49,896 bases of DNA. Source: an uncultured Bacilli bacterium (GTDB lineage: Bacteria; Bacillota_I; Bacilli_A; ML615J-28; CAG-698). Position numbers and translations under genes: made by a program. Under the pieces are notes generated by a model that was not told the origin of the DNA, did no database searches, and saw nothing but the letters and a program-made list of their open reading frames with translations. Of this stretch, positions 1 through 49,421 are shown in pieces; positions within the stretch are counted from its first letter, which is position 1, and every line of letters begins with the position of its first letter. The stretch lies in assembly GCA_947627195.1 (NCBI GenBank), contig CANQVC010000008.1, positions 1 through 49,896 on the forward strand, written 5' to 3'.

Positions 1-302
1 AAAGAATATTATGCTACAATATAAACTGTCAAAGAATATTATGCTACAATATAAACTGTCAAAGAATATTATGCTACAGCTTTATAATAGAATTTGTTAA
101 TAAATACAACTGTCAAAGAATATTATGCTACAGTATAAACTGTCAAAAAATATTATGCTACAACTTTATAATAGAATTTGTTAATAAATACAACTGTCAA
201 AGAATATTATGCTACAATATAAACTGTCAAAGAATATTATGCTACAGTATAAACTGTCAAAGAATATTATGCTACAATATAAACTGTCAAAGAATATTAT
301 GC
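1..302. repeat. Tandem repeat array, 30/54-bp periods
   Basis: Nine copies (seven intact, first and last partial) of a core of about 23 bp containing TCAAAGAATATTATGCTACA. Core starts fall at about 26, 56, 110, 140, 194, 224, 254 and 284, so most units have a 30-bp period (7-bp spacer ATATAAA or GTATAAA). Two units (56 to 110 and 140 to 194) have a 54-bp period because of a longer AT-rich spacer containing TTTATAATAGAATTTG. The array continues past the left edge. The spacers repeat rather than being unique and are too short for CRISPR. Read on the minus strand, each intact unit contains TTGACA, but no well-spaced -10 box follows. Confidence 0.9.
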
Positions 303-349
303 AAAAATAAAAAGAATTGGTTATATGTATCTCTACATATAATCAATTC
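303..349 (-). terminator. Rho-independent terminator of the 415-3157 operon
   Basis: A 16-bp stem (314-329 with 334-349) with a 4-nt loop. On the minus strand it is followed by a T-rich run (complement of 303-313). It lies about 65 bp downstream of the stop codon of the secreted peptidase gene. On the minus strand the stem has one A/C mismatch. Confidence 0.75.
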
Positions 350-414
350 AACATCAATTTTCCAAATTGAGATTAAAGCCTGATTACTTTATTACTTACA
401 TCATTTTTTTCAAC

Positions 415-1791
415 TTAAGACATTTTATCATTAACTCTGTTTAAAAATCCGCAATCACTAACGTAATGACAATATTCACACACATAATAATCAGTATCGA
501 TCCTTTTGTATCGATGTAATTCCACGGCTTGATAACCACAATCGGCGCAGCTAATTCGATGTGATATTAAATCCATGTCACTATAAAAACAATTTTCATG
601 TTGTGATACAAATTCATCTCTTAAACATATACCTTTCATGCATTTATCGCCATCTCTTTTATGATAATTTGTTGTATGGACATGTGGCATATAAAAATGT
701 ACAAAAACTCCTCCAAGTAAAGTGAATTTATTAATATGTGCGGCTGGTGTATATCCTCCATCTAGGAAATTAGCAATAATACCAATTTCATCATAAGCAT
801 AACCAACAACAGCATGAGAAATCCAATCAGCACTTAAATCGGTATCTCTTCCTTGAATTCCAATTAATACAGGATTATCTATTACTATTGCTTCTTTTAT
901 TTCACTTAAATTATTACATTGAAATACTAAAGCTTCTAATCCTCTTTCATTAATAATGTATTCTGTCATAATATTTTTAGCTTCTTTAATGGTTATTCCA
1001 TAATTACCATGAATAATGCCATTGTCCATAGCAAAATCCATTAATAAATATTGAAATTCATAAGTAATACCAGGTGGATTATAATAATCAACTATACTAT
1101 CTACACCATCTTTTAATATAACTTCTTCATCATATTCTTCAGGAATAATTGTATCATTTAAATAACTATCAAAATAACTTAGAATAGTAGTGATAGCAAC
1201 AAATCCACAACAGCCTTCTGGTCCAGCTAAAGTTTGTGAACCCATATTATTACTTAATTTTTCAAAATAATATTTGCATGGGACTTCAGCTTGTGTAGGT
1301 AAATCATTACCACTCATAGTTGATGCTTCATTTAAAGTAACTTTATAATTAGTATCAATATCTTTTTCTAAACTTTTTAAGCTCTTAATGCCCTCCATAG
1401 GAATTATCATTTCATTATTCACAGAGATCATGTTATTATTGTCTATTCTATAATAATAAGTAGGAGCTACATAGATTTTTTTATCTGTAATGCCACGATA
1501 TGGCGATGAACTATCTTCGGCATACTCTACATAATCCTTTAACTTTCTATTATAGATTAAATATCCCTTTTCCAATCCTTCTACCAGTACATACTTATTT
1601 TTTTCATTTATCCCATTTATTACTTCTGTACTGTAAGTATCCACCTTCAATGTTTTTGAAACCATCTCTTTAATATCATTTACTTCATTAAATGTAAGAG
1701 ATGATGAATAACCAATAATAGCAAATGTATTTACAGATGCTAATATAAAGATTAATACAAAACATATTAGAAACATGCTTATTTTCTTCAT
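415..1791 (-). CDS. Secreted C39-like / papain-like cysteine peptidase, Cys-rich C-terminus
   Basis: 458 residues with an N-terminal signal peptide (hydrophobic stretch about residues 5-24). The centre carries a papain/C39-like signature: Gln186, then GPEGCCGF with Cys194/195 as candidate nucleophile, and SHAVVGYAYD with His326 as candidate catalytic histidine. The last 80 residues hold several Cys pairs (CADCGY, CEYCHY) like a small zinc-binding domain. It is the last gene of an operon with a sigma factor and a membrane protein (gap of 9 bp to the gene upstream) and is followed by a terminator. Exported proteolytic function is inferred from the motif order; the substrate is unknown. Confidence 0.7.
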   Translation of the reverse strand: MKKISMFLICFVLIFILASVNTFAIIGYSSSLTFNEVNDIKEMVSKTLKVDTYSTEVINGINEKNKYVLVEGLEKGYLIYNRKLKDYVEYAEDSSSPYRGITDKKIYVAPTYYYRIDNNNMISVNNEMIIPMEGIKSLKSLEKDIDTNYKVTLNEASTMSGNDLPTQAEVPCKYYFEKLSNNMGSQTLAGPEGCCGFVAITTILSYFDSYLNDTIIPEEYDEEVILKDGVDSIVDYYNPPGITYEFQYLLMDFAMDNGIIHGNYGITIKEAKNIMTEYIINERGLEALVFQCNNLSEIKEAIVIDNPVLIGIQGRDTDLSADWISHAVVGYAYDEIGIIANFLDGGYTPAAHINKFTLLGGVFVHFYMPHVHTTNYHKRDGDKCMKGICLRDEFVSQHENCFYSDMDLISHRISCADCGYQAVELHRYKRIDTDYYVCEYCHYVSDCGFLNRVNDKMS

Positions 1792-1800
1792 CTTTTGCCT

Positions 1801-2553
1801 CTATAATTGATAAGATTTAAATGCTTGATCTTTATAATACACAACATATTGTTGATTATCATACATAAATTGATGAGAAACATGAAATGATGCTAATTCG
1901 CTAGTTCCATCACAATAATAACCAATTTGCATATATAATCCTGTTTGTCTTTCATTTAGGTACAAATCATCAAATTCTGAATTAACTAAACTACTGCAGT
2001 AATCTAATAATTCATTAGCTGTGTATAAAAACCCTGGAGATACAGTATGGATTTTTTTGTTTACATCTATTAAGACAATTTGATCAGTATTGTCTTTGGT
2101 ACCATAATAGACTATAAACTGTGAATTATCCTTGTACTCTTGAGACAATGTATCATGTCCCATCTGGGAAATAATTCCTGCTTTATAGAGTACATCTAGG
2201 GTTTGAACTGATCCAAAAGATATACATGTATCTATATGATCTTTGTATTTTTTTACATCTTTTGGGGCATCACTTTCATAAATAAACATTTCTGGGGAAT
2301 TGATAAATTTCATAGATACAATGCCGGCTATAAAACCTATGAAAAAAATCAATACTGCAAAACATAATTTAGATACGAAATTATATTTTCTAGTCTTTGC
2401 TTCCAAAGACTTTGCAGCCTCTTCTTCTCTTTTCTTGCGAAGAATTTCTTTCATCATTGCTACAGATTCAATTCTTGTATTTGGACAATCACTTGTAGCA
2501 TCTTCTATATTTTGTTTTAACATCTCTTCTAATTTTTTATCATTCCAGCTCAT
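1801..2553 (-). CDS. Single-pass membrane protein, probable anti-sigma factor
   Basis: 250 residues if translation starts at the ATG at 2553, which has a GAGG ribosome-binding site 8 nt upstream; the longer frame begins inside the preceding gene. The short Lys/Glu-rich cytoplasmic N-terminus (about 65 residues) is followed by one transmembrane helix (FAVLIFFIGFIAGIVSM) and about 160 extracytoplasmic residues. It overlaps the end of the sigma-factor gene by 14 bp. This size, topology and position directly after a sigma gene are typical of anti-sigma factors, but no zinc-binding ZAS motif (HxxxCxxC) is present, so the role is inferred from context. Confidence 0.6.
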   Translation of the reverse strand: MSWNDKKLEEMLKQNIEDATSDCPNTRIESVAMMKEILRKKREEEAAKSLEAKTRKYNFVSKLCFAVLIFFIGFIAGIVSMKFINSPEMFIYESDAPKDVKKYKDHIDTCISFGSVQTLDVLYKAGIISQMGHDTLSQEYKDNSQFIVYYGTKDNTDQIVLIDVNKKIHTVSPGFLYTANELLDYCSSLVNSEFDDLYLNERQTGLYMQIGYYCDGTSELASFHVSHQFMYDNQQYVVYYKDQAFKSYQL

Positions 2554-3157
2554 TAATTTCCTCTTTTTCTTCTTTTTTAACAACATCTAATGTTACATTT
2601 ATTTTATCTTTCTGTAATGGACGAACATAATATCCTTCTTTATCTAAATTGATTCTAATTTTCTTAATAGCATTATTATATTTTCTTCTAACTTTATGTT
2701 CTGACATTTTTAAAACATTACCTATATTTCGAAAAGGCATTTGTAATACTATATAATCATAGACAATGTCCCTTTCATCTTCATTTAAATATTCTAAAAC
2801 ATCATCAAATGAAATATTTCTTTCTCTATTCATTTCTTTTTCAAATATTTTTAATTCTAGTTCTTCACTTTCAATAATTTCTATTTGTTCTCTTACTTTT
2901 TCTCTCATTTTAGAAAGTATTGTATGATTAATTATTGAACATACATAACTTCTAAATTTTTTTGGATCTTTTACACGATAAGTATTTAGAATGATTTTTT
3001 CATAAATTTCTAATTCTAAATCTTTAATAACTTCAATATCATTAATCTTGGATCTTGCAAGATACCAAATTAATGCATGAAATTCTTCATATAATTTATA
3101 ACAAGCATCTTCATTAAAATTTATTAAATCAAAATATATGTCTTCTGAATCCCTCAC
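2540..3157 (-). CDS. ECF-like sigma-70 family RNA polymerase sigma factor
   Basis: 205 residues, GTG start with AGGTGA 6 nt upstream. Residues about 20-85 resemble region 2 (FHALIWYLARSKI, then PKKFRSYVCSIINHTI), and about 120-170 resemble region 4 with a helix-turn-helix (LNEDERDIVYDYIV, then MPFRNIGNVLKMSEHKVRRK). A charged tail of about 35 residues follows. As the first gene of the operon with a membrane protein and a secreted peptidase, it probably responds to an envelope signal and may autoregulate. No confident promoter was found in the 168 bp upstream. Confidence 0.75.
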   Translation of the reverse strand: MRDSEDIYFDLINFNEDACYKLYEEFHALIWYLARSKINDIEVIKDLELEIYEKIILNTYRVKDPKKFRSYVCSIINHTILSKMREKVREQIEIIESEELELKIFEKEMNRERNISFDDVLEYLNEDERDIVYDYIVLQMPFRNIGNVLKMSEHKVRRKYNNAIKKIRINLDKEGYYVRPLQKDKINVTLDVVKKEEKEEINELE

Positions 3158-9418: not shown

Positions 9419-9446
9419 AAACCTAATTAGGTTTTCATCCCTTTTT
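9408..9446. terminator. Bidirectional terminator between convergent genes
   Basis: Outer arms AAAAGGG/CCCTTTTT and an inner perfect palindrome AAAACCTAATTAGGTTTT, with T runs on both strands. It serves the 8813 gene (+) and the M60 gene (-) and overlaps both stop regions. Confidence 0.85.
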
Positions 9447-12400
9447 ATTTAATCTTTTTTTACGAATCAATATTATAATTATAATAGTTCCAATCAATAA
9501 TACACTGCATCCAATAACAATACCAACAATTAATGAATTATAATCTTTTGTTAACATTGGTACTATCTCTGTTTCCACATGTCCAAATGGACATTTTCTT
9601 TCTTTTAATCCTTCTTCTTTATATGTAGGTTCTTTAACAACTTCCCAGTTGCCCCATTCATGACCAGTTGCAGGTATTTCTTGTTGTTCTTCTAATATTT
9701 CATGACAAACTGAACAATGAACTTCATCAGTTAACCCTGGTGTTGTACATGTTGCATCATATCCTTTAATTATTTCTTCTTTGTGACCAGTTGCAGGTAT
9801 TTCTTGTTGCTTTGTTAATATTTCATAACAAACTGCACAACGAACACCATCAGTTAATCCTGATTTTGTGCAAGTAGGATCATATCCTTTAACTATTTCT
9901 CCTTGATGTCCTAAAGCTAGTATTTCTTGTTGCTTTGTTAATATTTCATGACAAATTGCACAACGTGTACCATCAGTTAATCCTGATTTTGTGCATGTAG
10001 GATCATATCCTTTAACTGTTTCTTCTTGATGTCCTAAAGCTTTAATTTCAATATTATCATTAGTTTCATTTGTACCATCAAAACTATAGGAACCACAAGC
10101 ACATAAATAATATTCTTTAGTACCATTTCTTAGACAAGTTGGATTTACTAATGCGATATGTTCGGTAAATGAATGATCTTGATGTAGTAACAAAATATGT
10201 CCAGCATTATTGGTATTTAATTCATTACTAATATTTTTTGTTTCCACATCAACAAATTGATTAGGTAAGATAATGCCATCAACTAAGAATTCATTAGGAA
10301 CATGTAATTTATTTAAATTAGAGCAGAAAAGAAAAATATCAACTAAACTAGCTTCTTTTTTAATATTTAATCCTAATAAATTAAGTTCAGTTAAGGAATT
10401 ACAATTTGCAAACATTGAACTTAAAAATAATGTTTGATTTGTTTTAAAATTACTTAAATCAAGAATTTGTAATTTATTACAATCACTAAACATTGATATT
10501 GTACTTCTCATTGATGTTGTATCAAAATTATCAAAGACAATTTCTTTTAAATTAGTACATCCTGCAAATAAAAACCCACATTCTGATGGTGATAATATAT
10601 TACCTTTATAAACAAAAGCAATTTTTGTTTTATCATCTTCTTTTTGATAAATACGAATGTAATCATTCATTCTTAAATACGTGTCATTATAACCATCAGG
10701 AACATTATTAAGAAATTTGATACTTGTTAATTCTTTATATTCAGGAACAATTGTTTTCCATTCAGTTGAAAATATTAATGGTGATTCATCACCATAATCA
10801 TCAGCAATTGTTGGAAAATCTTTTTCTTCAACAGGCGTTTGATAATCGACATTAATAAATGATATATTAAATAATAACGATGTATTTGTTTCAATTTTCA
10901 CAACATGATTCCCTATTTCTAAATCATGTTTACGAAAAACACATTTATTAAATATCCTTTTTTCTGCTAAATCTATATTTCCTACTAAAACATCATCAAC
11001 ATAAACAATTCCTGATCCATAACTTAAATCTGTATCAGCAAATATATCAAAACCAGTTCCTAAAAAAGAAAAGATATAATATGATCCTTCTTCTTTTGTT
11101 GTTAATTTACCATTAGCACTATTTTCAATAAATCCTTGATTTTCTTGTTCATAATTTTTAGGTCTAACTGTTTGTTCTAATGATACTGTTCTTCCTGCAG
11201 TTAATTCTTTTATAACTGTTTGTCCTGCTGTTTGTACAATCACTAATTTAAAATATCTAATCGCTCTTTCATTAAAATTAATTCTATATTTTAATGAATT
11301 AGGATCTTCTGTTAATCCATCAAATAAAAGTTCATAATCTTCATCATTTGGCGCTAAATCATTAACTATGTTTTTAGCACAATATAATTTAAAATTAATA
11401 ATTTTATCGTTTTGATTTCCTCTTCTTAAGATTTCAAAATAATTAGCAAATATTTCTTCTTTACAATCAATAATAATTGTATGAGGATATGGTGGTTTAT
11501 TACCTGCATAACTAGAATGATAATATGTACTTTCATCATTATCAATTAAGGCATTTATTCCTTGCCCATCATTGATATGAGCAACTGGACACTCAATAAT
11601 TTCCCAATTATTTTTTTCTGTTTTATAATCAATTGGTTCATCTTTAATACTATCTAAAAATTGGGGTTGCCATCCTTTAAATTCATCTGCTATTTCTAAT
11701 TCTTCATTTGTGACATTAGCATTTATTATATTATTAGATGGGATATCTTCAATTTTATCACTATTGGGGAATTTAACGCCTACATATAAATTACCTGGTC
11801 CACCCCAATTTACTAAATAACAATCGACATATAATGTATCATTAACATTTAATGTAACTTCAACATTATTACTTCCATAATTAGAAACATCTTTTGTTGT
11901 GAAGAGATTACCAATACTTTCACCATTTTCATTATCGCGATAAAAAGTAACACTTGATGCATCATCAGCTTTTAAATAAAATTGATGTAATCCTTCTTGA
12001 TTAGCCACAAATTTAAAACGTAAATGATATAATTCACGATTTGTTGGGGCGGCTGTAAAACGAGCCTTACCAGCTATATTACTTTCTTCAATACGATCTG
12101 GATTTCTACCATTTACTTCTTCTAAAGCTTGTTGAACTGATTGTTTAGGTTCTACATCATTACGTAAATTCCATACTTCAGCATATGTTCCACGATATAA
12201 AAGTTTAAAATTAACATTTAAAGTTACTATACGTCCTCCTTCTGTTTGTACAATTATATCAAAGCAATCATTTTCTCTTATTTCTTTGGGTGGAGTATAA
12301 GTTACTTTTAAATTATTGGAATCATATATAATATTTCCATATAATGGAGCTGTTACATCAATGATTTTAAATGATTTAGGTGAAATGATATTATCATTAG

Positions 12401-14471
12401 ATAAATCAAATATAGTATTAAATTTACCATCTACTTCATATTTACGAGCTGTTTCATTTCCATCTATACCATTACTATATCGATATGCTATTGGATAAAA
12501 ATCAGGTAATGTTTGTAAATAATGCCATTGTTCAGGAGTAAATGATGATTCTTGAACATTACCATGATAATTTTCATTAATCCAATTAAATAAATTGACA
12601 TGATTTATTAATCCCATTCGATAAATAAAATCAGCTCTACTTTCAGGACAATATGATTTATTTATTTTATAAGAATAAAAGAAGTCAACAAATCTACTTG
12701 GTCCAAATGAATGAATTAATGTTGCATATAAAGATAATTGATCAAAATGAGCTCCTTTGGTATTATTAAAATCATGATAATCTTCAACATCTTGCACATT
12801 CATTGATCTTTCAACAGCTGTATATGGATATACAAATTCTCCATGTTCTATTGTTGTCATTCGTGGATCCATATTACATAACAACGAATACATCAATACA
12901 ATCAATGTATTATTCCATACTTCTCCTTCACATGGTTCTTTACATGTACTATTACACATTCCCCAATTAACACCATATGTTTTAGCTTGAACATGTCCTA
13001 ATTCATGAAATGTTCCCCAGTTTCCTTTAGTTGTAAGATCTTCATAATTCATACATGTTTTAAACCATCCATATGGTTGAGCACAAAATGATGAATTAAG
13101 AGCAACTGCCTCACCTGCAGGAACATGAATATCGTAAGACATTGTAATATTATAATTATATGATCTACCATTTAATGATGAATTAATGGCAAATACAGAA
13201 TGCCAAAAATAAGCTAATTTTTCAATATCATCACATTCTTGCATATAATTTGCAAGTCCAATTAATTGACCATTTTCCACATCTAATGTGGCAATTAATC
13301 CTGGAGCATTACGTAAATTATTTTCAAATTCTGCTTTTGTTGTGACACCTAAAATATAATGTGGGGTTTCTAAGGCACCAGATATTTCTATTTCCACAGC
13401 TGAAGAAGTTGGTTGTAAATATAATGGTCCACCATATATACTACCTATTTGTTGAGTTCCATTTGATATTTCAAAAACAGAGCCCATACAAGGTACTTTT
13501 TGATTTTGCCATTTCCATTGACCTTGTAAACTAAAATCAAACTGTGTATAATTGGCTTTTCTTCCTTCTTTTGAAGCATTAGCAGCTTCTTCAATAAGTT
13601 TTAAATCCCAATAACGAAAATATTTTTCCGTTGAGGAAAGTTTACTATATGATGGATCAGTATTAGGATTAAAGTTATCACTAAAGCCACCATCATATCC
13701 TAAAGAATCTTGTTGATGAGTTGTTAATTTTATTTTTTCTCCTTCTTTTAATCCTTTAACAGTGACTGTTGCTACTTCACCTGGAGCAAGATATAAACCT
13801 GTAGTCATTGGTGATCGATATATTGGATCTGAAATTATTAATTTCTTTACAGCTTTAGCATTATCATCAATATGTCCATAAATATAATCAGCTGCTGGAT
13901 GTTTTTTAAGTTCACCATTATTTATATCAACCATTGATTGCGTACGATAAAACCACGATTGACGCAACAACATGTATTTCACAAAATCACTAAAATATTT
14001 TCTTTCCCCTTTATCTAATCCTCTCATTGGATATCTTGGATGTTTTAAATCTCCTAATACATTTTCTTCGGTACTATTTAGATTTCCTTCTTTACTAAAA
14101 TCAATATATGCTAATTCTTTTCCTTCTCCTTGATAAGGTTGATTAGTATTTGGATCAACAAAAGTAAATATATCAGATAAATCTTGGGTTTTAGATCTTT
14201 CAATATTTCGATCAAGAACTTCCATGTAAGGTTCTCTAATTGTCACTCTTCTTCCTTGCATTTCAGAAAATGTTTTACGTGATAATCCTTCATCAATTGA
14301 TTGAGGACGAACAATACCATCGTTTTCTAAAATATCATTATTAGAAACAGCTGATGATGGTATTGGATGAACAAATAAAGCTAAAATAATTAAAAATGAA
14401 ATTGTTATAATTAAACCAAATTGAAAATATTTTTTTATAAATTTTAAATTATTAAATTTACGTTTGAACAT
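9435..14471 (-). CDS. Large surface-anchored M60 (enhancin-like) metallopeptidase
   Basis: 1678 residues; ATG at 14471 with GGAGGG upstream. A signal peptide (about 1-45) leads to a Peptidase M60 domain with the zinc motif HELGH at residues 489-493 (13007-12993). Then follow a PA14-like region (about 790-930), an F5/8 type C (CBM32-like) carbohydrate-binding domain (about 960-1100), a further beta-rich domain, a DUF285/BspA-like leucine-rich stretch (about 1250-1390), and three and a half Cys-containing repeats of about 46 residues (pattern GYDPTCTKSGLTDG-xx-CA-x-C, coded by about 9630-10040). It ends with a membrane anchor (GIVIGCSVLLIGTIIIIILI) and a basic tail. M60 enzymes cleave mucin-type O-glycoproteins, so a host-glycoprotein substrate is likely but inferred. 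Confidence 0.9.
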   Translation of the reverse strand: MFKRKFNNLKFIKKYFQFGLIITISFLIILALFVHPIPSSAVSNNDILENDGIVRPQSIDEGLSRKTFSEMQGRRVTIREPYMEVLDRNIERSKTQDLSDIFTFVDPNTNQPYQGEGKELAYIDFSKEGNLNSTEENVLGDLKHPRYPMRGLDKGERKYFSDFVKYMLLRQSWFYRTQSMVDINNGELKKHPAADYIYGHIDDNAKAVKKLIISDPIYRSPMTTGLYLAPGEVATVTVKGLKEGEKIKLTTHQQDSLGYDGGFSDNFNPNTDPSYSKLSSTEKYFRYWDLKLIEEAANASKEGRKANYTQFDFSLQGQWKWQNQKVPCMGSVFEISNGTQQIGSIYGGPLYLQPTSSAVEIEISGALETPHYILGVTTKAEFENNLRNAPGLIATLDVENGQLIGLANYMQECDDIEKLAYFWHSVFAINSSLNGRSYNYNITMSYDIHVPAGEAVALNSSFCAQPYGWFKTCMNYEDLTTKGNWGTFHELGHVQAKTYGVNWGMCNSTCKEPCEGEVWNNTLIVLMYSLLCNMDPRMTTIEHGEFVYPYTAVERSMNVQDVEDYHDFNNTKGAHFDQLSLYATLIHSFGPSRFVDFFYSYKINKSYCPESRADFIYRMGLINHVNLFNWINENYHGNVQESSFTPEQWHYLQTLPDFYPIAYRYSNGIDGNETARKYEVDGKFNTIFDLSNDNIISPKSFKIIDVTAPLYGNIIYDSNNLKVTYTPPKEIRENDCFDIIVQTEGGRIVTLNVNFKLLYRGTYAEVWNLRNDVEPKQSVQQALEEVNGRNPDRIEESNIAGKARFTAAPTNRELYHLRFKFVANQEGLHQFYLKADDASSVTFYRDNENGESIGNLFTTKDVSNYGSNNVEVTLNVNDTLYVDCYLVNWGGPGNLYVGVKFPNSDKIEDIPSNNIINANVTNEELEIADEFKGWQPQFLDSIKDEPIDYKTEKNNWEIIECPVAHINDGQGINALIDNDESTYYHSSYAGNKPPYPHTIIIDCKEEIFANYFEILRRGNQNDKIINFKLYCAKNIVNDLAPNDEDYELLFDGLTEDPNSLKYRINFNERAIRYFKLVIVQTAGQTVIKELTAGRTVSLEQTVRPKNYEQENQGFIENSANGKLTTKEEGSYYIFSFLGTGFDIFADTDLSYGSGIVYVDDVLVGNIDLAEKRIFNKCVFRKHDLEIGNHVVKIETNTSLLFNISFINVDYQTPVEEKDFPTIADDYGDESPLIFSTEWKTIVPEYKELTSIKFLNNVPDGYNDTYLRMNDYIRIYQKEDDKTKIAFVYKGNILSPSECGFLFAGCTNLKEIVFDNFDTTSMRSTISMFSDCNKLQILDLSNFKTNQTLFLSSMFANCNSLTELNLLGLNIKKEASLVDIFLFCSNLNKLHVPNEFLVDGIILPNQFVDVETKNISNELNTNNAGHILLLHQDHSFTEHIALVNPTCLRNGTKEYYLCACGSYSFDGTNETNDNIEIKALGHQEETVKGYDPTCTKSGLTDGTRCAICHEILTKQQEILALGHQGEIVKGYDPTCTKSGLTDGVRCAVCYEILTKQQEIPATGHKEEIIKGYDATCTTPGLTDEVHCSVCHEILEEQQEIPATGHEWGNWEVVKEPTYKEEGLKERKCPFGHVETEIVPMLTKDYNSLIVGIVIGCSVLLIGTIIIIILIRKKRLNKKG

Positions 14472-14691: not shown

Positions 14692-14934
14692 TTATGCAAA
14701 AATCAATTCATTTTTTATTAGTTCTTGAGGATTAGGTTCAATTTGTTGGGTTATAATATCAGCAAAAGATCTACAAGTTTCATCTATATTTGATCTACCT
14801 ATTATGGTTTCATCATCTTTTACACCAATATATATAGTGCAACCATCAGCATTTAAAAATAAAACAATTTCTTTACAAATATTATTTGTAAATTTTTCTT
14901 CGAGTTCAACTATATTAGATTCTTGAAAAATCAT
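14692..14934 (-). pseudogene. Truncated AlbA_2 / Schlafen-like ATP-binding protein fragment
   Basis: An 80-residue frame from the ATG at 14934, chosen over the ATG at 14952 because AGGGG lies 9 nt before it. It matches the start of the AlbA_2 (Schlafen AAA_4-like) family: QESNIVELEEKF, then ICKEIVLFLNADGCTIYIGVKDD, then IIGRSNIDETC and QIEPNPQELIKNELIF. Members of this family are usually several hundred residues, so this is only the N-terminal part, ending abruptly at a stop. It may still be translated, since it has a ribosome-binding site and a terminator, but it is most likely a remnant. Confidence 0.65.
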
Positions 14935-15062
14935 ATGAAATGCCCCTAACATACCTATATTGTAATATATATAAGTAATTTTCTTAAATCTAAACCGACA
15001 TTTATTAGATTGAATTATAATATAAATACATATCAGAAACTCTTAATATATTTAGTATTTAA

Positions 15063-15240
15063 CTTTAAAGTAATCGAGACAAACTTGAAATTTATCTTGA
15101 ACAATAAAAAGGTATCACGTAAATCAGTCGTACCATTTTTTAAAGTAAAGTGTAGTTCTTTAATAAATGCTTCAGCAAGTTAATTTTTTTCCTATTATAG
15201 TCTTTTTTAAAAGCAGCAAATTTCAAATATCAACTAATTA
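15063..15240 (-). pseudogene. Remnant of a Fic-family gene
   Basis: Conceptual translation of the minus strand around 15180-15100 gives LAEAFIKELHFTLKNGTTD, which matches the segment of Fic proteins before the catalytic loop. Similarity is lost right after it. The preceding stretch (FAAFKKDY) lies in a different frame, so there is at least one frameshift. No start codon and no HPFx(D/E)GNGR motif are present. It is a decayed fragment in the same cluster of remnants as the AlbA_2 piece. Confidence 0.5.
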
Positions 15241-15246
15241 TTAATC

Positions 15247-15400
15247 ATCAATTGATTTAATCAAAGAAAAAAATCCTAAAAAAATCCATTTCATTTTCTA
15301 TGATCTATTATTAAAAAATTTATATGTTAATTATCCAGACAAAATAAAAAAGATTGAAACAATTATAAACAAGTTAACATTACAAATAAATTTGTATTAA
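15247..15400 (+). pseudogene. Short coding-like remnant, unrecognised
   Basis: The plus strand reads about 50 codons without a start codon (SIDLIKEKNPKKIHFIFYDL, then LLKNLYVNYPDKIKKIE) and ends at a stop inside the first 17-bp repeat. The composition looks like a real protein, but a stop lies in frame just upstream. I do not recognise the family. Chance cannot be excluded. Confidence 0.3.
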
Positions 15401-15494
15401 AAATAAATTTGTATTACAAATAAATTTGTATTACAAATAAATTTGTATTAAAAATAAATTTGTATTACAAATATATTGATATTAGTTTCAATCT
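15341..15494 (-). terminator. Terminator of tRNA-Ser with an enlarged loop
   Basis: Arms AGATTGAAAC (15351-15360) and GTTTCAATCT (15485-15494) are perfectly complementary. On the minus strand they are followed by TTTTTTATTTT. About 120 nt, mostly tandem repeat, separate the arms. The arms match the hairpin at 19067-19142 and, less exactly, the one after tRNA-Arg. Confidence 0.65.
15382..15483. repeat. Six 17-bp tandem repeats inside the tRNA-Ser terminator
   Basis: Units ACAAATAAATTTGTATT or AAAAATAAATTTGTATT start at 15382, 15399, 15416, 15433 and 15450, with a degenerate sixth at 15467. Each intact ACAAAT-type unit is itself a small palindrome (ACAAATAAATTTGT). Confidence 0.9.
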
Positions 15495-15514
15495 AATTCT
15501 TACCGAAATTATAA

Positions 15515-15605
15515 TGGCGGAGGAAAAGGGATTCGAACCCTCGCACCATGTTACTGATCTACTAGCTTTCCAAGCCAGCCCCTTCAGCCTCTTGGGTATT
15601 CCTCC
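15515..15605 (-). tRNA. tRNA-Ser(GGA)
   Basis: Cloverleaf of 91 nt with encoded CCA. The acceptor is GGAGGAA paired with TTCCTCC, the anticodon loop is TTGGAAA (anticodon GGA, reading UCC/UCU), a long class-II variable arm follows as expected for Ser, and the T-arm is GAGGGTTCGAATCCC. It stands alone on the minus strand, followed by the expanded-loop terminator. Confidence 0.95.
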
Positions 15606-48773: not shown

Positions 48774-49421
48774 TTAACTAGCTAATAAGAGTATGCGAGC
48801 ATGAAATTGATTGATTGATAGAATAGAATGCATTGGTAAAAATTGAATGCAAAACATTGTACCATCTACTAAATCCCATCGAAACCATAAAACGCCTGAA
48901 CCAAATTGTTCTTGTGGTTTCCCAATTAGTTCAACAACTTCTTCAAAAGTCATTCCATATACAATCATATTTTTAACATCTTCAAATGTTAAGTCATAAG
49001 TTAAATTAGGATCACATCTTGGTGCATCACTAGAACGTCCAGGAAATCCATAAACATATTCGATTGTCACTTCTTTAATAATGAGCTTATTTTCTTCTTC
49101 ATTATCTTTATTTTCTTCTTTGTCTAATTCATTAGATTCATTTTTAGAGTCTGAAATATCTTCTTTTTCATTATCTTTATTCTCTTCTTTTTCTAATTCA
49201 TTAGATTCATTTTTAGAATCTGAAATATCTTCTTTTTCATTATCTTTATTCTCTTCTTTTTCTAATTTATTAGATTCATTTTTAGAGTCAGAAATGTTTT
49301 CTTCGGTATTTTCATCAACTATTGTTTCTTCTATATTATCTTTATTAGAAACTTTATAAACAATACCTAATAAAGCAACACATGTTAGAATAACAACACC
49401 AAAAAATATTAACTTTTTCAT
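48774..49421 (-). CDS. Exported protein with Glu/Lys/Asn-rich tandem repeats and FGSG module
   Basis: 215 residues. A hydrophobic N-terminus (LIFFGVVILTCVALLGIVYK) acts as signal or anchor. Residues about 45-110 are three tandem 23-residue units (pattern ISDSKNESN-x-LEKEENKDNE), repeated also at the DNA level with a 69-bp period (about 49100-49310). The C-terminal domain has YGMTFEEVVELIGKPQEQFG, SGVLWFRWDLVDGT, resembling small beta-rich modules of the SmpA/BamE type. The repeat number probably varies. It may be co-transcribed with the gene to its right. Confidence 0.75.
   Translation of the reverse strand: MKKLIFFGVVILTCVALLGIVYKVSNKDNIEETIVDENTEENISDSKNESNKLEKEENKDNEKEDISDSKNESNELEKEENKDNEKEDISDSKNESNELDKEENKDNEEENKLIIKEVTIEYVYGFPGRSSDAPRCDPNLTYDLTFEDVKNMIVYGMTFEEVVELIGKPQEQFGSGVLWFRWDLVDGTMFCIQFLPMHSILSINQFHARILLLAS

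What the first reader, a model, noticed from the sequence alone, without database searches (positions are those of the whole stretch)
9435..14471. Large M60 peptidase with sugar-binding, leucine-rich and Cys-repeat modules
The combination of M60 catalytic domain, PA14-like, F5/8C, DUF285-type repeats and three near-identical Cys repeats before a membrane anchor is elaborate for so small-looking a genome. It points to attachment to and cleavage of host mucin. The Cys repeats may vary in number.
Basis: partly seen in the sequence, partly recalled or inferred. Interest (0 to 1): 0.5.

Follow-up and report, generated by a model that had tools for sequence, protein, structure and literature searches.

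The report
Mobile mucin-type peptidase on Cys-rich stalk
A gut bacterium carries a very large surface enzyme, probably for cutting sugar-coated host proteins such as mucin, held on a stalk of cysteine-rich repeats that has no fitting name in the databases searched; the gene seems to move between unrelated gut bacteria and its stalk changes length from species to species.

Summary
Window 9435-14471(-) is one open 1678-aa frame: signal, M60 metallopeptidase, PA14-like sandwich, CBM32, another beta-sandwich, DUF285/PARCEL repeats, Cys-rich modules, membrane anchor. M60 and DUF285 pass Pfam cut-offs; CBM32 is confirmed by fold; PA14 has weak support. The zinc ligands and three published GalNAc-site residues of M60 mucinases (W485, N521, R537) are present by spacing, as are four of five canonical Gal/GalNAc residues of the CBM32. 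An O-glycopeptidase/mucinase is likely but untested. The protein changes much faster than RpoB among close relatives yet keeps within 3 points of RpoB, or above it, across families and classes, and lies at different chromosomal sites in two congeners: horizontal transfer, direction unresolved. (2) Canonical Cys copies number 3, 1 and 0 in three Bacilli. (3) The module has no fitting Pfam or NCBIfam family, is predicted confidently as an all-beta repeat without clear PDB match, and occurs in 49 of 392 sampled genomes. Terminal modules repeatedly lack both the first Cys and the following His, hinting at one Cys3His metal site. New variant of a known kind.

The parts
9435..14471 (-). whole gene: 1678-aa M60 surface peptidase
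   Evidence: open frame; Pfam
14346..14471 (-). N-terminal signal sequence / hydrophobic segment (aa 1-42)
   Evidence: read from the sequence; no signal-peptide program run
12477..13829 (-). M60-like N-part plus M60 catalytic region (aa 215-665), the most conserved part of the protein
   Evidence: Pfam M60 aa 365-610; 84-93% identity to three Bacilli and 64-68% to three Clostridia relatives
12993..13007 (-). HELGH zinc/catalytic motif (aa 489-493); third ligand E517; GalNAc-site residues W485, N521, R537
   Evidence: spacing compared with PMC9325726 passages
11640..12197 (-). PA14-like beta-sandwich (aa 759-944)
   Evidence: weak: 8 of 9 PDB rows of a profile search are PA14-type proteins, best E 0.037; conserved DD pair
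11181..11639 (-). CBM32 / F5_8 type C domain (aa 945-1097) with H985, Y988, R1016, N1021
10842..11180 (-). second small beta-sandwich without a family name (aa 1098-1210)
   Evidence: AlphaFold strands; conserved in relatives; fold not searched alone
10311..10574 (-). DUF285 / PARCEL repeats
10041..10184 (-). variant Cys module (CxC instead of CxxC; aa 1430-1477)
9918..10040 (-). canonical Cys repeat copy 1 (aa 1478-1518)
9795..9917 (-). canonical Cys repeat copy 2 (aa 1519-1559)
9672..9794 (-). canonical Cys repeat copy 3 (aa 1560-1600)
9552..9671 (-). degenerate cap module (aa 1601-1640) lacking the first and third Cys and the trailing His
9438..9554 (-). C-terminal membrane anchor with basic tail (aa 1640-1678), no LPxT
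   Evidence: read from the sequence; aligned anchors in relatives

Best explanation
It is a membrane-anchored extracellular zinc O-glycopeptidase of the M60 (mucinase) family. The CBM32, and perhaps the PA14-like domain, hold terminal Gal/GalNAc of O-glycans while the M60 domain cuts the peptide next to an O-GalNAc. DUF285 repeats and a stalk of Cys3His beta-modules set the distance from the membrane, and module number is adjusted by tandem duplication or loss. The gene travels as a whole between gut Bacilli and Clostridia by horizontal transfer. Shown here by computation: frame, domains, active-site and sugar-site residues, stalk-number differences, patchy distribution, different chromosomal sites in MAG contigs, and joint absence of the first Cys and the following His in terminal modules. 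Inferred: enzyme activity, mucin as substrate, metal binding and the spacer role of the stalk, and the mechanism of transfer.
For: M60 over cut-off. HELGH-x23-E fits HEXXHX(8,28)E of PMC3267712 (passages). W four before the first His, N four after the ligand Glu and R 16 after that N match spacings given for AM0627 (R at 15) and BT4244 (R at 16) in PMC9325726 (passages); all are invariant in the 7 aligned relatives. The genome's other M60 (L002) lacks the Arg. CBM32 fold Z 18.6 to CpGH89CBM32-5 with Tn antigen; H985, Y988, R1016, N1021 have the spacing of H1392/Y1395/R1423/N1428 of PMC3313936 (passages; alignment). PMC13003899 (passages) reports that two M60 mucinases need CBM32 on extended mucins. 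Transfer: RpoB/protein identity 93/83, 92/75, 97/75 for three close pairs, but 69-71/67-74 across families and 41-54/50-55 between the Bacilli and the Clostridia. Close relatives in 4 of 395 Bacilli and 11 of 297 genomes of a Clostridia order. In congener G001 the gene lies just before an rsmE-type gene, while in the window's genome dnaJ directly precedes that gene, and G001's copy of the window's site holds other genes. The only CBM32 and only DUF285 matches in the genome lie in this protein. Stalk: table 297/2/18/25 of 342 modules; pLDDT 95.2; TIGR01053 zinc-finger model over its cut-off in 1 of 14 arrays.
Against: No assay. The M60 profile of this group finds no solved M60 by sequence. The residue at AM0627 Asp318's place is Lys here, the Tyr288 counterpart was not located (both read by hand), and the fifth CBM32 residue (F1483) was not matched. 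No BNR_2 sialidase in the genome, while AM0627 is reported essentially inactive on sialylated complex substrates (PMC9325726). Transfer direction is not shown: a tree with the Clostridia relatives as one clade is not rejected (p-AU 0.408). G001's M60 frame begins at its contig's first bases, so its other side is unseen, and MAG misassembly is possible. The joint absence of Cys and His comes from terminal modules only: all 10 internal modules without the first Cys keep the His, which the one-site model explains only if that His has a second role; caps could simply be a degenerate module type.
Confidence: 0.65

Rival explanations
1. The M60 enzyme acts on O-glycosylated surface proteins of neighbouring bacteria, or on dietary or plant glycoproteins, rather than on host mucin; the stalk and CBM32 serve bacterial contact.
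For: No substrate data exist; Cys modules also sit on other frames of the same genome; no sialidase of the BNR_2 family.
Against: The O-GalNAc-site residues and the Gal/GalNAc CBM32 motif fit mucin-type O-glycans; the family is described as host-associated (PMC3267712, title and abstract passage).
Confidence: 0.2
2. The protein was inherited vertically in these lineages and lost in most relatives; the matching divergence reflects strong constraint, not transfer.
For: The four Bacilli sequences form one clade at 100/100; the Clostridia-clade alternative is not rejected; the catalytic part is strongly conserved.
Against: Between close relatives it differs 2.4 to 8 times more than RpoB, yet across families and classes it stays within 3 points of RpoB or above it; different loci in congeners; unique CBM32 and DUF285 in the genome.
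Confidence: 0.2
3. The Cys modules are disulfide-stabilised rather than metal-binding, or bind haem through CxxCH-like motifs, and the cap is just a degenerate copy.
For: Two of three canonical copies contain CxxCH (CAICH, CSVCH); weak Pfam rows to cytochrome-type and magnetochrome models; internal modules without the first Cys keep the His.
Against: CxxCH is not kept: of 117 seed modules 97 have G, D or N and 6 have H after CxxC; the jointly missing pair is Cys and His, which cannot form a disulfide, and it recurs in 16 terminal clusters at 50% identity.
Confidence: 0.3

Closest known systems
BT4244 (Bacteroides thetaiotaomicron) and ZmpB (Clostridium perfringens) M60 mucinases with CBM32
   Same: M60 gluzincin with W/N/R GalNAc site by spacing and an attached CBM32
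   Different: CBM32 lies after the catalytic domain here (before it in the order of the 7jfs title, and in the BT4244 constructs described); DUF285 repeats, Cys-module stalk and membrane anchor are added; no solved M60 was reached by phmmer (E<=0.1) or by the group profile (E<=10)
AM0627 mucinase (Akkermansia muciniphila)
   Same: same zinc ligands and W, N, R residues by spacing (Arg one residue nearer there)
   Different: AM0627 has no CBM according to PMC13003899 (passage); no such stalk in the two-domain structure described (PMC9325726, passage)
DUF285/PARCEL surface proteins (Mycoplasma, Listeria and others)
   Same: TIGR02167 and PF03382 repeats on a surface protein; horizontal spread is described for PARCEL (PMC2996958, passages)
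   Different: here the repeats are a middle part of an enzyme; the word 'peptidase' does not occur in the main text of that paper
SasG/Aap G5-E stalks of staphylococci
   Same: elongated beta surface stalk; top rows of both structure searches of the Cys repeats
   Different: match not significant (E 0.02; Z 4.2); no such Cys/His pattern in G5-E is known to me (recall)

Membership tests
Peptidase M60 (PF13402) | Pfam score over the curated cut-off | tested here: met
   100.9 vs 25.8 bits
Peptidase M60 (PF13402) | gluzincin pattern HEXXHX(8,28)E | tested here: met
   H489-E-x-x-H493, then 23 residues, then E517; pattern from PMC3267712
O-glycopeptidase/mucinase type of M60 | Trp, Asn, Arg and aromatic around the G1' GalNAc | tested here: inconclusive
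   W485, N521, R537 met by spacing; the aromatic (Tyr288 of AM0627) not located; residues from PMC9325726; no structure superposed
O-glycopeptidase/mucinase type of M60 | cleavage of O-glycopeptide that depends on the glycan | not testable with these tools
   needs an assay
CBM32 / F5_8 type C | Pfam PF00754 over cut-off | tested here: not met
   20.1 vs 28.2 bits; 25.1; so claimed only on fold and residues
CBM32 / F5_8 type C | discoidin-type beta-sandwich fold | tested here: met
   Z 18.6, rmsd 2.0 A over 137 residues to 4a44
CBM32, galactose-binding group | motif H, Y, R, N, F | tested here: inconclusive
   four of five present (H985, Y988, R1016, N1021), Phe not located
PA14 domain | PF07691 match | tested here: inconclusive
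   not among Pfam rows at E<=10 for the segment; weak profile hits to PA14-type proteins, (accession PF07691 is recall)
DUF285 / PARCEL | PF03382 and TIGR02167 over cut-off | tested here: met
   27.9 vs 25 bits; 30.5 vs 30 bits
Kazal inhibitor (for the Cys repeats) | consistent PF00050 match and a six-Cys pattern | tested here: not met
   over cut-off on isolated segments (25.9 and 28.5 vs 21), not on the whole protein (16.0); 1 of 14 arrays matches at E<=0.01; three Cys per module; six Cys is recall
LSD1 zinc finger (TIGR01053, for the Cys repeats) | model over cut-off across the module family | tested here: not met
   17.2 vs 15.5 bits for the window's three copies, 6 residues aligned, 1 of 14 arrays; 15.2 on the longer piece

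The most novel reading that the evidence does not exclude
The Cys module is an undescribed metal-binding beta-repeat (one Cys3His site per module, inert cap at the end) that forms length-adjustable stalks on many surface proteins of gut Bacilli and Clostridia, and this M60 enzyme is a mobile example exchanged between two classes living in the same gut, apparently the rabbit's. (Odds lowered from 0.45 on recheck, because the joint loss is confined to terminal modules.)
Probability: 0.4. Interest if true: 0.6.

Novelty: new variant of a known kind. Interest (0 to 1): 0.46.

Why it matters
From the papers seen here, M60 mucinases are mostly studied in Bacteroides, Akkermansia and clostridial pathogens. 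A cell-bound M60 enzyme in an uncultured, small-genome Bacilli lineage without a BNR_2 sialidase suggests that such bacteria may take part in mucus breakdown after others have trimmed the glycans. Independently, the Cys module is common (49 of 392 sampled genomes) and had no fitting family in the two libraries searched; naming it and testing zinc would annotate parts of many large surface proteins at once.

Tried and rejected
Kazal inhibitor for the Cys repeats: rejected (1 of 14 arrays, three Cys per module). Cytochrome-type CxxCH: H follows CxxC in 6 of 117 seed modules. Relation to solved M60 by sequence: none found with a profile. A transfer direction from Clostridia to Bacilli: the tree leans that way (Clostridia relatives one side of a branch in 6% of 200 bootstrap trees) but the AU test does not reject their being one clade, so not claimed. 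Synteny: of window frames compared with L034, L035, L038 and L039, besides the M60 gene itself only a weak 24% match in L035 and PFL in L039 recurred, PFL about 4 kb from the M60 gene and in another relative orientation; taken as chance. The Cys repeats against viral models gave two phage proteins at E<=0.001, taken as relatives carried by phages, not followed. Of 494 Foldseek PDB matches none reaches E<=0.001; a weak or missing match does not prove a new fold. Paper searches: rabbit MAGs (none, listing only), 'peptidase M60' with Firmicutes (none), Cys repeats (one unrelated paper); that the module is undescribed in print rests alone.
Full report
OBSERVATION. The frame 9435-14471(-) encodes 1678 aa. 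Pfam places M60 at aa 365-610 and DUF285 at 1301-1387 over their cut-offs, with M60-like_N and F5_F8_type_C below theirs; NCBIfam adds the PARCEL repeat. The F5/8C domain is supported by sequence hits to chitobiase and galactose-oxidase modules and by the predicted fold of aa 666-1215 (mean pLDDT 82.1, 21 sequences): about aa 945-1097 match CBM32 structures at Z 18.6. PA14 has weak support only. The 123-bp tandem repeat is real; copies 1 and 2 share 113/123 bases, copy 3 shares 94 and 98/123 with them. The window's genome is 1.84 Mb in 78 contigs, 98% complete.

ACTIVE SITE. HELGH is aa 489-493 with E517 as third ligand, after 23 residues, inside the HEXXHX(8,28)E pattern of PMC3267712 (passages read). 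PMC9325726 (passages read) lists Trp321/Asn347/Arg362/Tyr288 of AM0627 and Trp570/Asn595/Arg611/Tyr538 of BT4244 around the GalNAc. By spacing W485, N521 and R537 correspond; I could not place the Tyr, and AM0627's Asp318 corresponds to Lys (by hand). A pattern that required W and N found 41 distinct M60 sites in the loci at hand, many of them close relatives; 40 of 41 have an Arg 16 to 18 residues after the N, and the one without is the genome's own second M60, L002. The CBM32 carries H985, Y988, R1016, N1021 at the spacings of H1392, Y1395, R1423, N1428 of CpGH89 CBM32-5 (PMC3313936, passages). Of the 21 rows aligned, H is in 21, an aromatic at 988 in 21, an Arg at 1016 or 1017 in 20, N1021 in 16; all four Bacilli have H, an aromatic, R and N.

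RELATIVES AND TRANSFER. One scan of the species genomes of GTDB release 220 with six short peptide patterns gave six loci, L034-L039, all MAGs of the series 'Lapin', three titled Bacilli and three Clostridia. That 'Lapin' means rabbit gut is my inference; a paper search found nothing, and the scan finds close relatives only. A profile of the M60 part (A1) found close relatives (over 780 bits) in 4 of 395 sampled Bacilli genomes and 11 of 297 sampled genomes of the order of L039's genome, with 7 further at 338-391 bits and weaker matches to make 45 of 297. Of the 11, two are the genomes of L037 and L039; I fetched the other 9, and 5 of the 7. Of those 9, eight reach the Cys modules by regex (1 to 5 each; L095 runs off its contig) and L093 is cut by its contig end. 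Pfam on one of them, L089, shows DUF285 over its cut-off and F5_F8_type_C just below; for the others the architecture was judged by eye and one search's output was cut. The 5 distant ones have no regex module.

RpoB from the seven genomes gives RpoB/protein identities of 93/83 and 92/75 between congeners, 97/75 for L038/L039, 69-71/67-74 across families, and 41-54/50-55 between Bacilli and Clostridia (L038's RpoB is partial, so its 41-44 and 97 rest on 691-768 sites). Across families and classes the protein lies within 3 points of RpoB or above it. A fast-changing surface protein that keeps pace with RpoB across classes is best explained by transfer. The tree puts the four Bacilli in one clade (100/100); the Clostridia group is one side of a branch in 6% of 200 bootstrap trees, but the AU test does not reject it (p 0.408). 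In congener G001 the window's flanks lie on contig C31 about 10 kb apart, beside the same tRNA-Ser; between them are a Peptidase_C1/Lectin_like protein, a HaeIII-type restriction enzyme with C5 methylase, and an AAA_15 ATPase. G001's M60 frame runs from its contig's first bases and is followed by an rsmE-type RNA methylase; in the window's genome DnaJ is followed directly by that gene. PF00754 and PF03382 each match only this protein in the genome.

CYS STALK. Canonical copies by strict regex: 3 in the window, 1 in L034, 0 in L035 (which has two copies of the variant module), 2 in L037 (one of the variant type), one each in L038 and L039, whose Cys regions are much longer; L036 is cut before this part. 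With a looser regex that counts variant modules the numbers are 4, 2 and 2 for window, L034 and L035. Pfam and NCBIfam scans of 14 three-repeat arrays gave no family matched by more than 2 of 14; for the window's copies alone Kazal_1 and the TIGR01053 zinc finger pass their cut-offs. AlphaFold on the window's three copies with 13 other arrays gives mean pLDDT 95.2, strands only. Of 494 Foldseek PDB matches none reaches E<=0.001; the best are SasG/Aap stalks at E 0.02; VIA best Z 4.2. The module occurs in 49 of 392 genomes of a phylum sample; all 49 belong to the window's class, and the sample's make-up beyond the listed rows is not shown; it also occurs in the Clostridia frames above. In this genome it is in at least five frames.

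A module profile found 346 modules in 55 frames; 4 cut by contig ends were dropped. Of 342, 297 have both first Cys and following His, 2 only the Cys, 18 only the His, 25 neither. After clustering at 50% identity, 128/2/12/16 of 158; among 92 modules at the end of an array 58/1/8/25. All 10 internal modules without the first Cys keep the His, so the joint loss is a property of array ends; at least two rows in the His-only cell look like unrelated proteins and were left in. The second Cys is Cys in all 342, the third in 329. The window's own cap lacks the third Cys too. The seeds were chosen to have both Cys and His, which works against finding the double loss. Rows are related, so p-values overstate. 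I read this as one site made of first Cys, CxxC and next His, dropped in the cap; a merely degenerate cap is the rival.

MECHANISM. Most likely an anchored zinc O-glycopeptidase that binds Gal/GalNAc through its CBM32 and cuts beside O-GalNAc, raised from the membrane on DUF285 and Cys-module spacers. PMC13003899 (passages) reports CBM32 to be needed for two M60 mucinases on extended mucin, which makes the pairing meaningful. The missing BNR_2 sialidase suggests that it works on trimmed glycans. None of this is assayed.

VERDICT. Ordinary in its catalytic kind, a new variant in architecture, with a Cys3His stalk module that lacks a fitting family and good signs of gene mobility as the parts worth following.

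Noticed in passing
L002 (G000:C6), 79-3063(-): The genome has a second M60 protein of 994 aa (HEIAH) that lacks the Arg of the GalNAc site.
   Followed up: partly
window 14692-15605: An 86-aa SLFN_AlbA_2 fragment and tRNA-Ser(gga) lie beside the M60 gene; in congener G001 (L143) the same site holds a Peptidase_C1/Lectin_like protein, a HaeIII-type restriction enzyme with C5 methylase and an AAA_15 ATPase: a variable spot.
   Followed up: partly
window 12924-12992: The four Bacilli relatives have a Cys-containing insert (MCNSTC...C) between HELGH and the third zinc ligand; the three named Clostridia relatives lack it.
   Followed up: no
window 15379-15477: A 17-bp unit repeated 5.8 times between the fragment and tRNA-Ser.
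   Followed up: no
window 1-313: 30-bp and 84-bp tandem repeats at the left edge of the window.
   Followed up: no
window 49088-49303: 69-bp unit repeated 3.1 times in a stretch overlapping short ORFs.
   Followed up: no
L115 (G615:C31): A 5924-aa open frame with many Cys modules in another Bacilli genome.
   Followed up: no
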